From the IMG/VR virus record IMGVR_UViG_3300043466_003345, positions 1 to 25,946 of that record: a DNA stretch of 25,946 nt; one strand, written 5' to 3'. A program made the position numbers and the translations under genes. Every line of letters begins with the position of its first letter. Position 1 is the stretch's first letter. Below are positions 1 to 25,946 of the stretch, in pieces. The notes beneath the pieces are model-generated. The model had not been told where the DNA came from. It did no database searches and saw only the letters and a list, made by a program, of their open reading frames with translations. Origin of the DNA: a virus.

Positions 1-594
1 AAACAATATCAAAACCAAGGACTTGATTTTCCTGATTTGATTGCTGAAGGTAATTTAGGTTTAATGAAGGCGATTAAAAATTTTGATTGGAGTAAAGACC
101 TTAGATTTATATCTTATGCGGTGTGGTGGGTAAAACAATCAATTTTACAATCTTTGAACGACAACGCAAGAACTATTCGTCTACCAGTAAATGTTGTGCA
201 AGATTTATATAAGGCGAAGAAAGAATCTGAACTGACAGGGAAAGAATTAGAAAATAGATTCCAAACATTACCATCAATGTCTAATTTAGATGATACTATT
301 AATGAAGATGGGGATACACTTGTAGACATTATTAAAAATGATGACGCATTATCTCCTGACCATAGTTTTAATAGTAAGGATATTTTAAAAAATAAATTAA
401 AAAATCTTCTTGATAATTTAGACGAAAGAGAAAGAGCGATAATTGAAGATTATTATGGATTGTCTGGTAGTCCAAGAACATTAGAGGATATTGGTGAAGA
501 TTTTAATCTTACTAAAGAGAGAGTGCGACAGATAAAGGAGAAAAGTTTAAGAAAATTAAGAAACGAAAGTTCGATATTATTCGACTATATGTAA
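1..594 (+). CDS. RpoD-like sigma-70 factor (5' end outside window)
   Basis: The reading frame is open from base 1, so the N-terminus lies upstream. The visible 197 residues carry sigma region 2 (FPDLIAEGNLGLMKAI, then RFISYAVWWVKQSILQ and RTIRLPVNV) and region 4 (LDERERAIIEDYYGL, then the helix-turn-helix TLEDIGEDFNLTKERVRQIKEKSLRKLR). These recognise the -10 and -35 elements for core RNA polymerase. The part between regions 2 and 4 is short: the helix-turn-helix of region 3 seen in Bacteroidetes RpoD appears to be missing. A short phage-borne factor like this could redirect host polymerase to phage promoters. A strong terminator follows the stop codon. The family call is firm; the phage-specific role is inferred. 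Confidence 0.93.
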   Translation, partial: KQYQNQGLDFPDLIAEGNLGLMKAIKNFDWSKDLRFISYAVWWVKQSILQSLNDNARTIRLPVNVVQDLYKAKKESELTGKELENRFQTLPSMSNLDDTINEDGDTLVDIIKNDDALSPDHSFNSKDILKNKLKNLLDNLDERERAIIEDYYGLSGSPRTLEDIGEDFNLTKERVRQIKEKSLRKLRNESSILFDYM

Positions 595-10891: not shown

Positions 10892-11443
10892 TTATTGTTT
10901 TGGTGTATACTCCCTCAATTTGTCGGTATCTTCCAACAGGTATGGTGTTGGATAAAAGAGACCCAAAGGTGTATACTCACTCAATTTGTCGGTCTCTTCC
11001 AACTTATCCATCAATTTTACTGCTCGAGGTTGAGGTGTATACTCCCTCAATTTGTCGGTCTCTTCCAACCTTGGCAAAGTTCTATCAAAACGCCATTCGG
11101 GTGTATACTCCCTCAATTTGTCGGTCTCTTCCAACAAGGTCCTTTCAATCCCTCTGCAAGTGGCAGGTGTATACTCCCTCAATTTGTCGGTCTCTTCCAA
11201 CCATATATTCATAATTGATTGAATTTCAGTGTACTCCATACCAAAAAATGACTCAAAAAATGACCAAATTTGATTATAATCAATCCAAAATTTCTTATTT
11301 TTTAAATCTTGGTTAATTACAAAAATATCACCTTTTTTATAAAATATAGAATTTGGATAATAATCATGTTTGTACATTTTCATTTTATCCAAGTTAAAAT
11401 TATCATTTAACCACTTTAACTTAATTTTTGTTAATTTATCCAT
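10892..11443 (-). CDS. Phage protein whose C-terminus is translated from a repeat-spacer array
   Basis: 183 residues. Residues 1-81 are an ordinary small folded protein (MDKLTKIKLKWLNDNF to FGMEYTEIQSIMNIW). From residue 82 on the sequence is five copies of LEETDKLREYTP or variants (LEDTDK, KLSEYTP), separated by four unrelated 10-residue peptides, ending in KQ. Each unit is 66 nt (22 codons), so the frame stays open through the array. The first copy continues the folded part without a break, so the repeat probably arose from the gene's own 3' end. Whether the long form is made as protein is unknown. A G/C-rich hairpin lies 24 nt upstream of the start. No known domain is recognised. Confidence 0.75.
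   Translation of the reverse strand: MDKLTKIKLKWLNDNFNLDKMKMYKHDYYPNSIFYKKGDIFVINQDLKNKKFWIDYNQIWSFFESFFGMEYTEIQSIMNIWLEETDKLREYTPATCRGIERTLLEETDKLREYTPEWRFDRTLPRLEETDKLREYTPQPRAVKLMDKLEETDKLSEYTPLGLFYPTPYLLEDTDKLREYTPKQ
10902..11201 (-). CRISPR. CRISPR-like array: five 36-nt repeats, four 30-nt spacers
   Basis: Repeats lie at 10902-10937, 10968-11003, 11034-11069, 11100-11135 and 11166-11201. On the minus strand the repeat starts GTTGGAAGAGACCGAC and ends GAGGGAGTATACACC. The three copies nearest the gene body are identical; the fourth and fifth each have one C-to-A change (plus strand). All four spacers are exactly 30 nt, unrelated to each other, and richer in G+C (51 of 120 by hand count) than the surrounding DNA. 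The 36/30 geometry and GTTG start resemble type II and type VI-B repeats of Bacteroidetes. No cas gene lies in the window. The array is also coding, in frame with the upstream gene. Mutated repeats at the far end suggest insertion occurs at the gene side. Confidence 0.85.
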
Positions 11444-11492: not shown

Positions 11493-11506
11493 ACTTTCAC
11501 CGACAC

Positions 11507-11670
11507 GGTTGAGGTATTTCTACCCGAATCGAAACTCCCGATTCTTGGAGGTTGGGTTTTCTTCCCCAGGATTTCCCGACATTCCTTTTCACCATTAAGG
11601 TTGAGGTGTTTCTACCCGAATCGATACCCCCGATTCTTGGAGGTTGGGTTTAAGGATTTCCCAACATTCC
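11507..11670. repeat. Twin structured direct repeats in noncoding DNA
   Basis: Two copies (11507-11585 and 11599-11670) begin with GGTTGAGGT and share most positions. Each contains a hairpin with arms GAATCG/CGATTC (11526-11544 and 11618-11636) and a second with arms GTTGGG and CCCGAC or CCCAAC. The arms are conserved while loop bases and loop length (18 versus 11 nt) differ, which points to selection on RNA structure. The strand is uncertain. The 290-nt stretch 11444-11734 holds no convincing gene. Confidence 0.7.
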
Positions 11671-11734
11671 CGTTTGATGATACAAAGATAAGCCAATTTT
11701 TTGAATTTACAAAACATTTATCAAAAAAAAATTT

Positions 11735-11830
11735 AGTCAGGACAGGATTCGAACCTGTTCCACGGCAAGTGATTGGTACTGACCTTTCGGTTACTCCCAT
11801 TTCCGCCCGCTACCATTACGGCACCTGACT
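11735..11830 (-). tRNA. tRNA-like gene, 96 nt, anticodon arm unusual
   Basis: On the minus strand a 7-bp acceptor stem (AGTCAGG with CCTGACT) is followed by TG, a D-arm (CCGT AATGGTA GCGG) and a perfect T-arm (ACAGG TTCGAAT CCTGT). No CCA is encoded. Between the D- and T-arms lie 48 nt, too many for a normal class I tRNA, and no clean 5-bp anticodon stem with a 7-nt loop can be drawn. The best class I pairing (CGGAA with TGCCG) leaves a 33-nt loop holding a GAAA-capped hairpin. It could be an unusual class II tRNA, a tRNA with an insertion, or a decayed one. It starts 5 nt after the stop of the upstream gene. Confidence 0.65.
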
Positions 11831-13787: not shown

Positions 13788-13955
13788 ATGGCAATCAAAG
13801 GAAAACCTTACAAAGACGAAAAAGATAAAAAAGTTAAATACGGAATCAGTATTGACAGACATCTATTTGAACGAATGAAAAAAGAAGAAGTCAGCGTTTC
13901 CAAGTTTATACAGAATCTAGTGAAAGAGTATTATGAGAAAGTATCAAGTAAATGA
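13788..13955 (+). CDS. Ribbon-helix-helix-type small DNA-binding protein
   Basis: 55 residues from the ATG at 13788 (earlier in-frame starts would include the promoter). A basic N-terminus (MAIKGKPYKDEKDKKVK) precedes a strand, YGISIDRHLFERMKKEEV, and a helix, SVSKFIQNLVKEYYEKV. This is the pattern of Arc/MetJ/CopG-type repressors, which bind DNA as dimers. It may repress its own promoter and perhaps the divergent operon. The 3' end overlaps the homing endonuclease start by 23 nt. The fold call is moderate. Confidence 0.7.
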   Translation: MAIKGKPYKDEKDKKVKYGISIDRHLFERMKKEEVSVSKFIQNLVKEYYEKVSSK

Positions 13956-14745
13956 AAAGTTTTTTGACGAACTAAATGAAAAATCAGCATATTGGTTAGG
14001 ATTTTTATATGCAGATGGGTGTGTTAGATTTAAACATGGTAGAAGCGGTGAGTTGAAGTTGAAATTGAATAGTAAAGATAAATCACATATAGAGTTGTTT
14101 TTAAAAGATATTGAAAGTAATTCACCTATTAAATGTGATGATGGTGGTAAAAGTGAGTGTTGTTTTACTTATATTAATTCAAATTATCTTGTCAGTAGAT
14201 TGTATGAGTTAGGTTGTGTACAAAATAAAACACAAAAAATTCGATTACCAAAAATAGAATCAAATTTGATATCACATTTTATTAGAGGGTATTTTGATGG
14301 TGATGGATGTATCTATAAAAACAAAAATAGACCAAATTCCTTTGTTGTTAGTATTTGTTCAAATAATAATTTTATAAATGATTTAAATGAATTTTTTTCA
14401 AAAGGTAAAATTTTAAAATATGAAAAGTATTCCGTTTGGAGTTTACATAAAATTGATGACATAAAACTATTTAAAGAATTTTTGTATAAAGAAAGTGAAA
14501 CATTTATGAAGAGAAAATTTGATAAATTTAATGAAATTGATTATAATTTTAAACGAGATTACAGTTTAACTAAAAACAAATTTAAATACAAATTGACTAA
14601 CCCAGATGGTATGACTATAATTGTTGAAAATTTACGAAAGTTTTGTGATGAAAACGGATTAGTTTATTCAACTATGTCTAATTTGTCAAGAAATGTTGGT
14701 AGAACAAATAAAGGTTGGAAGTGTGAATTATATAATAAACTTTAA
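13933..14745 (+). CDS. LAGLIDADG homing endonuclease with NUMOD-like DNA-binding tail
   Basis: 270 residues. Two LAGLIDADG motifs are visible, YWLGFLYADG (20-29) and FIRGYFDGDG (116-125), each with the catalytic acidic residue, so it should act as a monomer. A C-terminal segment (about 215-268, NPDGMTIIVENLRKFCDENG then VGRTNKGWKCE) resembles the NUMOD-type modules that help such enzymes bind DNA. It is free-standing, not inside an intron that can be seen, and lies between the small DNA-binding protein and the Dam methylase. It is a selfish element that may help spread the region among related phages. Confidence 0.88.
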   Translation: MRKYQVNEKFFDELNEKSAYWLGFLYADGCVRFKHGRSGELKLKLNSKDKSHIELFLKDIESNSPIKCDDGGKSECCFTYINSNYLVSRLYELGCVQNKTQKIRLPKIESNLISHFIRGYFDGDGCIYKNKNRPNSFVVSICSNNNFINDLNEFFSKGKILKYEKYSVWSLHKIDDIKLFKEFLYKESETFMKRKFDKFNEIDYNFKRDYSLTKNKFKYKLTNPDGMTIIVENLRKFCDENGLVYSTMSNLSRNVGRTNKGWKCELYNKL

Positions 14746-14756
14746 AAAAAAAATAG

Positions 14757-15674
14757 ATGGCAATTTCATATATTGGGGGTAAGTCGAGAATTAGTTCGTT
14801 CATTACCCCATTTATCCCTACTGACATTGATACATACATAGAAATTTTCTCAGGCATGTACTGGGTATTTTTAAAAATGGATTTAGATAAATACCCGAAT
14901 TTGAAAACAGTTGTTTACAATGACTACAATTCATTAAATGCTAATTTATTTAAATGTATTAAAAACTATGATAAATTATGGGATGAATTATCAAAATACC
15001 CTTGTCAACAACTTGGGGTTGAAAATACTCCTCCTGAATATGAGGAAATGTTCAATAAATTTCAAAAAGAAGTGTTTGACCCCAATTATATCATTGGTGA
15101 TGAACCTAATTTTGATGCAGCTTGCAAATATGTTTATGTTCTGACTCAAATATTTTCAGGCTCAAAACCTGAGACCTCAAAATATACTGACTATAAAGGT
15201 AAATATAGATGTAAAGTTTTGATTTTCATGGATAAATTGAAAAATCCTGAATACAGAAAACATTTTGATAAAATAACTTTTATTGAGAATATGGATTTTG
15301 AGGAGGTTATTAAAAAATACGATTCACCAACTACATATATTTATGCCGACCCGCCCTATTTCTCAAAAGAAACATATTATTCCAACCATGATTTTGATAG
15401 AAATGACCATGAAAGATTGGCAAATGTATTAAAGAATATCCAAGGTAATTTTTCACTATCATATTATGACTTCCCATTACTACATCAATGGTATCCTACA
15501 CATCAATATAAATGGAAGAAAAAATTATTTGCAAAAGCTGCGGCAGCAAAGAAAGGTGTAACACAAAATATGGGTGAAGAATTATTAATTATGAACTACA
15601 CGTTAAACGAAGAAAAATCTGCGGTAAAGATTCCCCAACTTAAACGTGGTGAACAACTTTCATTGTTCAATTAA
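14757..15674 (+). CDS. Dam-type N6-adenine DNA methylase (D12 class) with clamp-binding tail
   Basis: 305 residues. SAM-binding motif elements are YIGGKSR (5-11) and YIEIFSGM (27-34); the catalytic motif is D198-P-P-Y201 (ADPPY). This is the D12/Dam class, which methylates adenine N6 in a short site. The protein ends GEQLSLFN, and QLSLF (300-304) is the canonical bacterial sliding-clamp-binding peptide, suggesting recruitment to replication forks. No partner restriction enzyme is near. It probably protects phage DNA; the target sequence cannot be read from the gene. Confidence 0.9.
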   Translation: MAISYIGGKSRISSFITPFIPTDIDTYIEIFSGMYWVFLKMDLDKYPNLKTVVYNDYNSLNANLFKCIKNYDKLWDELSKYPCQQLGVENTPPEYEEMFNKFQKEVFDPNYIIGDEPNFDAACKYVYVLTQIFSGSKPETSKYTDYKGKYRCKVLIFMDKLKNPEYRKHFDKITFIENMDFEEVIKKYDSPTTYIYADPPYFSKETYYSNHDFDRNDHERLANVLKNIQGNFSLSYYDFPLLHQWYPTHQYKWKKKLFAKAAAAKKGVTQNMGEELLIMNYTLNEEKSAVKIPQLKRGEQLSLFN

Positions 15675-25196: not shown

Positions 25197-25413
25197 AGAA
25201 CATGTAAATCATCCTAGTCATTATCAATTTGGAAAAAATAATGAGTACGAAGCAATTAAAGTAATAGATGCTTGGGGTTTGGGATTTAGTTTAGGAAATA
25301 CCATTAAATATATCTCAAGGGCTGGTAGAAAAGACAAAACTAAAGAAATTGAAGATTTAAAGAAAGCTATGTTTTATTTAGAACATCATATTAAAACATT
25401 GGAAAGTAAATGA
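25186..25413 (+). CDS. DUF3310-family phage protein
   Basis: 75 residues: VNHPSHYQFGKNNEYEAIKV, then IDAWGLGFSLGNTIKYISRA, then GRKDKTKEIEDLKKAMFYLE. All are hallmarks of DUF3310 (phage SaV-like), often annotated as a nucleotide-kinase-related protein, though the activity is not established. It is typical of phage genomes. The stop overlaps the next start as ATGA. Confidence 0.9.
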   Translation: MENKEHVNHPSHYQFGKNNEYEAIKVIDAWGLGFSLGNTIKYISRAGRKDKTKEIEDLKKAMFYLEHHIKTLESK

Positions 25414-25946
25414 ATGCACCAGTAAGGTATTACGGAAGTAAAGGAGGTTTCTACAATAAGATTATTGAATTTTTTCCTACTGATGGTTATGATACATATA
25501 TTGAACCTTTTGCGGGTACATTCATAGTAGGTTTAAAAAAACCAATCACAAAAATTGAAGTGTACAATGATATGGAGAAGAATATATATTCTCTATATAA
25601 AGTAATATCGGATAAAGAATTGTTCCAACAATTTAAAGAAAAGTGTGATTTGGTTTTTTATTCTGAAGATATCAGGAAAGAATTTAAAGAAGAACTTAAA
25701 AAAGAATTATCCATAGTTGATAGAGCATTTTATTTCTTTTATGTGAATAGGACATCTCATAATGGAATTGGGGGATTCTCAATGAATACTCATGTAAGAA
25801 GAGGGATGAGTAAAGCGGTTTCAGATTTTCTATCGGCAATAGACAGACTACCTGAATTACATGACAGATTATCAAAAGTTATTGTTACAAATACTGATGG
25901 TATTAAGTTAATTGAAAAATATAATAATCCAAATACATTACTATAT
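25410..25946 (+). CDS. Second Dam-type N6-adenine methylase (3' end outside window)
   Basis: 179 residues visible. RYYGSKGGFYNKIIEFFP and YDTYIEPFAG (about 29-38) are the D12-class SAM-binding motifs, and YVNRTSHNGIGGFSMNTHVR is a conserved central block. The window ends at NPNTLLY, just where the catalytic DPPY motif is expected. It is distinct from the methylase at 14757, so the phage carries at least two adenine methylases. It overlaps the DUF3310 gene by 4 nt. Confidence 0.9.
   Translation, partial: MNAPVRYYGSKGGFYNKIIEFFPTDGYDTYIEPFAGTFIVGLKKPITKIEVYNDMEKNIYSLYKVISDKELFQQFKEKCDLVFYSEDIRKEFKEELKKELSIVDRAFYFFYVNRTSHNGIGGFSMNTHVRRGMSKAVSDFLSAIDRLPELHDRLSKVIVTNTDGIKLIEKYNNPNTLLY

What the first reader, a model, noticed from the sequence alone, without database searches (positions are those of the whole stretch)
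10892..11443. A CRISPR-geometry array that is the in-frame 3' end of a phage protein gene
Five 36-nt repeats and four 30-nt unrelated spacers lie inside one open reading frame, starting at 11443 on the minus strand. The repeat encodes LEETDKLREYTP and continues the gene's own last helix (IQSIMNIW-LEETDKLREYTP), so the repeat looks derived from coding sequence rather than inserted. The 66-nt unit is 22 codons, so growth preserves the frame. Repeats are identical even at silent positions while spacers are wholly different, which excludes ordinary divergence of a protein repeat. No cas gene is in the window. Possible readings: a phage mini-array using host Cas1-Cas2 and effector, a decoy or anti-defence RNA, or a new system that captures foreign DNA and translates it as variable peptides.
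Basis: partly seen in the sequence, partly recalled or inferred. Interest (0 to 1): 0.95.

Follow-up and report, generated by a model that had tools for sequence, protein, structure and literature searches.

The report
CRISPR array growing from phage gene
In a large family of uncultured Flavobacterium-type phages, the last 36 bases of one small protein gene act as a CRISPR repeat to which new ~30-base DNA fragments keep being added, so a phage gene doubles as a growing CRISPR array although no cas1 or cas2 gene was found in the phages searched.

Summary
Five 36-nt repeats and four 30-nt spacers form the in-frame 3' end of a 183-aa ORF at 11443-10892 (-). The gene belongs to an undescribed phage family: 159 distinct copies in IMG/VR, 117 with 1-7 spacers (222 spacers, 191 unrelated clusters, nearly all 29-32 nt). 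A DNA-only search for the repeat found 54 arrays; 53 sit directly behind this gene and the other is cut by a contig end.

Growth is in place and polar. The window and a 98.4%-identical phage share the two distal spacers and differ in the two gene-proximal ones. Seven groups show this direction, none the reverse, one pair is ambiguous. One pair of phages differs by a single 67-bp repeat-spacer unit and 3 substitutions in 6.2 kb. Synonymous sites at both repeat ends are strongly constrained (Leu TTG 92% vs 13%).

Best reading: phage-borne mini-CRISPR arrays whose acceptor repeat is protein-coding DNA, extended by Cas1-Cas2 supplied in trans by the host. No cas1 was found in 66 phage records. Use as guides is inferred: no protospacer was found, and the repeats show no conserved hairpin. 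Frame preservation and peptide diversification are not supported as the general purpose.

The parts
10892..11443 (-). ORF of 183 aa: phage protein (residues 1-81) plus repeats and spacers
   Evidence: family members; AlphaFold model of residues 1-93 pLDDT 91.7
11202..11443 (-). gene body; its last codons (ATGAATATATG) occupy the place of a CRISPR leader
11166..11201 (-). repeat 1 (gene-proximal acceptor; third base of Trp81 plus codons for LEETDKLREYTP)
11136..11165 (-). spacer 1, absent from the near-identical phage L008
11100..11135 (-). repeat 2
11070..11099 (-). spacer 2, absent from L008
11034..11069 (-). repeat 3
11004..11033 (-). spacer 3, shared with L008 (one substitution)
10968..11003 (-). 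repeat 4 (one substitution, also in L008)
10938..10967 (-). spacer 4, identical in L008
10902..10937 (-). terminal repeat (one substitution, also in L008), followed by Lys-Gln-stop

Best explanation
The 3' end of a small phage gene is an acceptor site for CRISPR adaptation. The last 36 coding bases (last base of a Trp codon plus the codons for LEE-T-[DYL]-[NK]-L-x-x-x-TP) act as a CRISPR repeat and the codons before them take the place of the leader. A Cas1-Cas2-type integrase, most likely supplied in trans by the Bacteroidota host, inserts ~30-bp fragments at the gene-repeat junction and duplicates the repeat each time. The result is a mini-CRISPR array, cotranscribed with the gene, whose spacers turn over rapidly. 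SHOWN: geometry, in-place growth, gene-end polarity, constant association with this gene, nucleotide-level constraint at both repeat ends, and no cas1/cas2 in the searched records. INFERRED: that the enzyme is Cas1-Cas2, that it comes from the host, that the array is cotranscribed, and that it is used as guides by a host effector against rival elements.
For: 159 distinct gene copies, 117 with 1-7 spacers; lengths 30 (96), 29 (52), 31 (49), 32 (18); 191 unrelated spacer clusters. DNA-only search: 53 of 54 arrays lie behind the gene, the 54th is cut by a contig end. Polarity: 12 pairs in 7 groups share distal and differ in proximal spacers, 0 the reverse, 1 ambiguous. Window vs L008 98.4% identical over 7.36 kb with spacers 1-2 replaced. 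L164 vs L124 99.5% identical over 4.6 kb, only spacer 1 of 5 differs. L066 vs L067: one 67-bp unit and 3 mismatches in 6,206 bp. Repeat 2 differs from its own gene's repeat by 0.74 nt on average but by 9.1 nt from other genes' repeats. Synonymous constraint at both ends: Leu TTG 99/108 vs 115/852, Thr ACA 70/74 vs 156/305. Position 1 is G in 94/95 and position 36 is C in 84/95, the places where type II Cas1-Cas2 attacks in S. thermophilus (PMC6895254). The leader-distal end read inward is GGTGT or GTTGT; GTTGT is the leader-distal motif shared by F. columnare II-C and VI-B 36-bp repeats, and II-C machinery there adds spacers to VI-B in trans despite unlike leaders and repeats (PMC8092290). Nearest cultured match of a recombinase near a relative: Flavobacterium phage. 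No cas1/cas2.
Against: No protospacer found: not in 50,697 phage records, plasmids, related phage contigs or three exact IMG/VR scans. Host arrays with this repeat could hardly be sought (the two genome-contig scans found nothing). Repeats are not hairpin-enriched (mean z +0.26). The stop-codon bias tied to spacer length is not predicted. Loss by recombination could explain single pairs such as L066/L067.
Confidence: 0.7

Rival explanations
1. Spacer trap: the gene end mimics the host's leader-repeat and diverts new spacers away from the host array, weakening immunisation; the captured spacers themselves have no use.
For: Constraint is concentrated at the two repeat ends; the middle drifts with the protein and has no hairpin, as expected for a DNA acceptor rather than a crRNA scaffold.
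Against: A trap should fill with the infecting phage's own DNA; no spacer matched its own or a related contig outside arrays in the sets tested, and spacers are richer in GC than the phages (36.6% vs 31.1%). Self-spacers could have been purged if guides work.
Confidence: 0.14
2. By-product: host Cas1-Cas2 integrates by mistake at a chance repeat mimic, with no benefit to the phage.
For: Off-target integration at leader-repeat-like sites is documented for type II Cas1-Cas2 (PMC6895254).
Against: Synonymous end constraint persists across the family and arrays occur in 117 of 159 copies; 53 of 54 pattern-found arrays are at this one gene.
Confidence: 0.1
3. Diversification of the protein: foreign 30-mers are captured to be translated as variable C-terminal peptides.
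For: Window ORF open through the array; gene-frame stops in spacers 42/191 vs 69 and 84 in the other forward frames.
Against: Only 27/30/33-nt spacers keep the frame and these show no stop depletion (29/88 vs 31, 35); the bias sits in 29/32-nt spacers that run into a stop in repeat 2. 34 of 117 ORFs already stop in spacer 1.
Confidence: 0.05
4. An unrelated phage-encoded integrase builds the array.
For: No cas1 found in the phages.
Against: No neighbour gene is conserved: the commonest occurs in 17 of 69 loci. No other known enzyme makes 36-bp target duplications around 30-bp inserts (own knowledge).
Confidence: 0.06
5. Ordinary in-gene tandem (protein) repeat.
For: The repeat is coding and in frame in the window.
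Against: Unrelated spacers, frame-breaking lengths, polar spacer replacement.
Confidence: 0.01

Closest known systems
Virus-borne mini-CRISPR arrays (SPV1/SPV2, PMC6858448)
   Same: Virus-borne, no cas genes, few spacers, active spacer turnover at a fixed position, proposed use of host adaptation enzymes
   Different: SPV arrays are intergenic with a host-like promoter-bearing leader, 1-2 spacers and protospacers in related viruses; here the repeat is the coding end of a gene, the leader is coding sequence, there are up to 7 spacers, and targets are unknown
Subtype II-C / VI-B arrays of Flavobacterium columnare (PMC8092290)
   Same: 36-bp repeats, shared GTTGT leader-distal motif, adaptation in trans on an array without its own cas1/cas2
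   Different: Host chromosomal and non-coding; the hairpin expected of VI-B repeats is not seen here
Single repeat units / RNA anti-CRISPRs (Racr, reviewed in PMC11656645)
   Same: Isolated CRISPR repeat in a phage; zero-spacer gene copies resemble it
   Different: Here repeats accumulate spacers and are protein-coding
CRISPR-like repeats inside protein genes (usual CRISPR-finder false positives; own knowledge)
   Same: Repeats in frame within an ORF
   Different: Here intervals are unrelated, replaced between near-identical phages and often break the frame

Membership tests
CRISPR array | near-identical direct repeats with unique spacers of near-constant length | tested here: met
   36 nt; spacers nearly all 29-32 nt; 191 clusters
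CRISPR array | polar addition at the leader end and turnover between strains | tested here: met
   7 groups, none reversed, 1 ambiguous pair
CRISPR array | degenerate leader-distal terminal repeat | tested here: met
   typical in relatives; single change in the window
CRISPR array | spacers match mobile elements | tested here: inconclusive
   no protospacer found
CRISPR array | non-coding leader with promoter | tested here: not met
   upstream DNA is the gene's own coding sequence
CRISPR array | transcription and processing to crRNA | not testable with these tools
   no RNA data
Virus-borne mini-CRISPR array | no cas genes in the virus | tested here: met
   no cas1 in 66 records incl. the window, no cas2 in 22; records are mostly fragments, effector genes not searched
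Virus-borne mini-CRISPR array | repeat (near) identical to host repeat | not testable with these tools
   host unknown; one exact genome-contig scan negative
Virus-borne mini-CRISPR array | spacers target related viruses | tested here: inconclusive
   none found in related contigs for the spacers tested
Type VI-B repeat | stable repeat hairpin | tested here: not met
   mean z +0.26 over the family's repeats
Type VI-B repeat | 36-nt repeat with 30-nt spacer | tested here: met
   window and most relatives; the 36-bp repeat is shared with II-C of F. columnare, so not diagnostic

The most novel reading that the evidence does not exclude
A protein-coding gene end has become a CRISPR adaptation site: one stretch of DNA is under selection both as protein and as Cas1-Cas2 acceptor, giving phages an updatable guide memory without cas genes and showing how a CRISPR repeat can be born from ordinary coding sequence.
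Probability: 0.4. Interest if true: 0.96.

Novelty: new variant of a known kind. Interest (0 to 1): 0.9.

Why it matters
It would be the first described CRISPR array family whose repeat is the coding end of a protein gene (no precedent found in the open-licence papers searched). It makes three open questions testable: how viruses keep mini-arrays up to date without cas1/cas2, how promiscuous Bacteroidota Cas1-Cas2 is for its leader, and how new CRISPR loci arise. CRISPR finders that discard arrays inside ORFs would miss it. The arrays also record which DNA these uncultured phages meet.

Tried and rejected
Protospacer searches: phages, plasmids (one chance-level hit), related contigs (strong hits only at arrays), all fetched loci (AT-rich partial matches, plus L065 3413-3440, which is an old distal spacer before a degenerate repeat, not a target), three exact IMG/VR scans. 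Host arrays by exact repeat in genome contigs: none; homologues of the gene there: none. Repeat hairpin as a sign of Cas13b use: rejected. Conserved neighbour gene as the builder: rejected. Protein function by Pfam/PHROGs and fold: only uncharacterised phage proteins. Repeat in cultured phages or plasmids: none. My memory of Cas13b repeat sequences gave a lead only; it was not verified in the papers.

Full report
OBSERVATION. The array is exactly as described. On the minus strand R1 11166-11201, S1 11136-11165, R2 11100-11135, S2 11070-11099, R3 11034-11069, S3 11004-11033, R4 10968-11003, S4 10938-10967, R5 10902-10937, inside ORF 11443-10892. R1-R3 are identical; R4 and R5 have one change each. 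The record is a 25,946-bp virus contig.

FAMILY. Residues 1-93 have no Pfam match and the family no consistent PHROG match, and no tblastn hit in 50,697 phage records, tried with three family members. IMG/VR holds many relatives. AlphaFold gives a confident helix-four strands-two helices fold (pLDDT 91.7) with no PDB match and only uncharacterised phage proteins in BFVD. The repeat encodes the end of the last helix and the tail. A recombinase near a relative is closest to Flavobacterium phage immuto (42% identity), so the hosts are probably Flavobacteriia.

ARRAYS ARE A PROPERTY OF THIS GENE. Among 159 distinct gene copies, 42 have no second repeat by my criterion, 59 have one spacer, 34 two, 9 three, 6 four, 8 five and 1 seven. 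With the scan started elsewhere in the same genes, 10 of 507 gave a second copy, versus 88 of 128 at the repeat. Spacer lengths are 30 (96), 29 (52), 31 (49), 32 (18), a few others; 222 spacers of 27-34 nt fall in 191 clusters. A search of IMG/VR with a degenerate repeat pattern, blind to the gene, gave 54 arrays; 53 have the gene body directly upstream and the last begins 5 nt from a contig end. No other gene is conserved beside it.

GROWTH IN PLACE AND FROM THE GENE SIDE. Repeat 2 is identical to its own gene's repeat 1 in 37 of 58 arrays with at least three repeats (mean difference 0.74 nt), against 9.1 nt to other genes' repeats. Where related arrays share spacers but differ, the shared ones are distal and the different ones gene-proximal in 12 pairs (7 groups); none is reversed, and L014/L016 is ambiguous. 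The window and L008 are 98.4% identical over 7.36 kb around the array, share spacers 3 and 4 and differ in 1 and 2. L164/L119 and L124, from different metagenomes, share spacers 2-5 and differ in spacer 1. L066 and L067 become identical except for 3 of 6,206 bases when one 67-bp unit next to the gene is left out; alone that could be loss, but replaced first spacers require gain. Genes identical over 210 nt can carry wholly different spacers (L164/L120, L039/L016).

SELECTION ON THE REPEAT AS DNA. In gene bodies Leu is TTG in 115 of 852 codons, at repeat positions 2-4 in 99 of 108; Thr is ACA in 156 of 305, at positions 32-34 in 70 of 74 (Fisher about 1e-62 and 1e-13; gene copies are related, so these p-values overstate independence). 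Internal Leu at positions 20-22 is free (44 TTA, 41 TTG). So the two ends are constrained beyond the protein, as expected for an integration site. G1 (94/95) and C36 (84/95) match the attack sites, and 36 bp the ruler length, of type II Cas1-Cas2 (PMC6895254). The leader-distal end read inward is GGTGT, or GTTGT in some lineages; F. columnare II-C and VI-B share 36-bp repeats with leader-distal GTTGT, and II-C machinery feeds VI-B in trans in spite of different leaders and repeats (PMC8092290).

WHO BUILDS IT. No cas1 in 66 records (the window plus 65 phage contigs, up to 304 kb) and no cas2 in 22; control genomes rang. The records are mostly fragments, and effector genes were not searched. 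Host supply in trans is therefore the best inference, not a demonstration.

WHAT IT DOES. Not shown. Spacers have 36.6% GC against 31.1% in the phage loci (paired test p 2.5e-8), and the spacers tested have no match in their own or related contigs outside arrays, which speaks against self-derived filling unless self-spacers are purged. No target was found elsewhere. The repeats have no hairpin excess. My ordering is: guides for a host effector against rivals, then spacer trap, then by-product.

TRANSLATION. Gene-frame stops in spacers are depleted overall (42/191 versus 69 and 84 in the other forward frames), but mainly in 29/32-nt spacers (5/63 versus 27 and 26) and not in frame-keeping ones (29/88 versus 31 and 35). 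Shifted reading usually runs into a stop in repeat 2. ORFs end in spacer 1 (34), repeat 2 (22) or the terminal repeat (47) of 117. So the first spacer is at times read, but in-frame growth is not the rule. The cause is unexplained.

LIMITS. Metagenome contigs; related copies inflate counts; host genomes not searchable here; prior literature searched only among open-licence papers.

Noticed in passing
window 11495-11651: Two 65-nt copies (89% identical, 92 bp apart) of an element with CCGAATCG/CGATTCTTGG arms upstream of the array gene; also in L008/L001, in no other fetched locus outside the window, no Rfam match.
   Followed up: partly
window 11734-11830, minus strand: tRNA-like sequence: AGTCAGG...CCTGACT acceptor-like ends and GGTTCGAATCC T-arm with an enlarged middle; ARAGORN does not call it. 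Possibly an interrupted or degenerate tRNA.
   Followed up: no
191 spacer clusters across loci: Stop codons in the gene frame are depleted in spacers of 29/32 nt (5/63) but not of 30 nt (29/88 with 27 and 33 nt included); cause unknown.
   Followed up: partly
L071, L020/L021, L103, L023-L025: The array gene occurs as 4-6 tandem paralogues, often with their own spacer and degenerate repeat; the terminal repeat can overlap the start codon of the next copy.
   Followed up: partly
L008 and L013 (one 63.6-kb contig, IMGVR_UViG_3300044638_006592): Two separate arrays with different repeats, each matching its own gene copy, in one phage.
   Followed up: partly
window 13933-14745: LAGLIDADG homing endonuclease-like gene (PF14528, E 7e-9).
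   Followed up: no
window 14757-15674 and 25410-25946: Two DNA adenine methyltransferase-like genes (PHROG 56; PF02086).
   Followed up: no
window 1-594: Partial gene for a phage-encoded RNA polymerase sigma factor (PHROG 351, E 6e-48).
   Followed up: no
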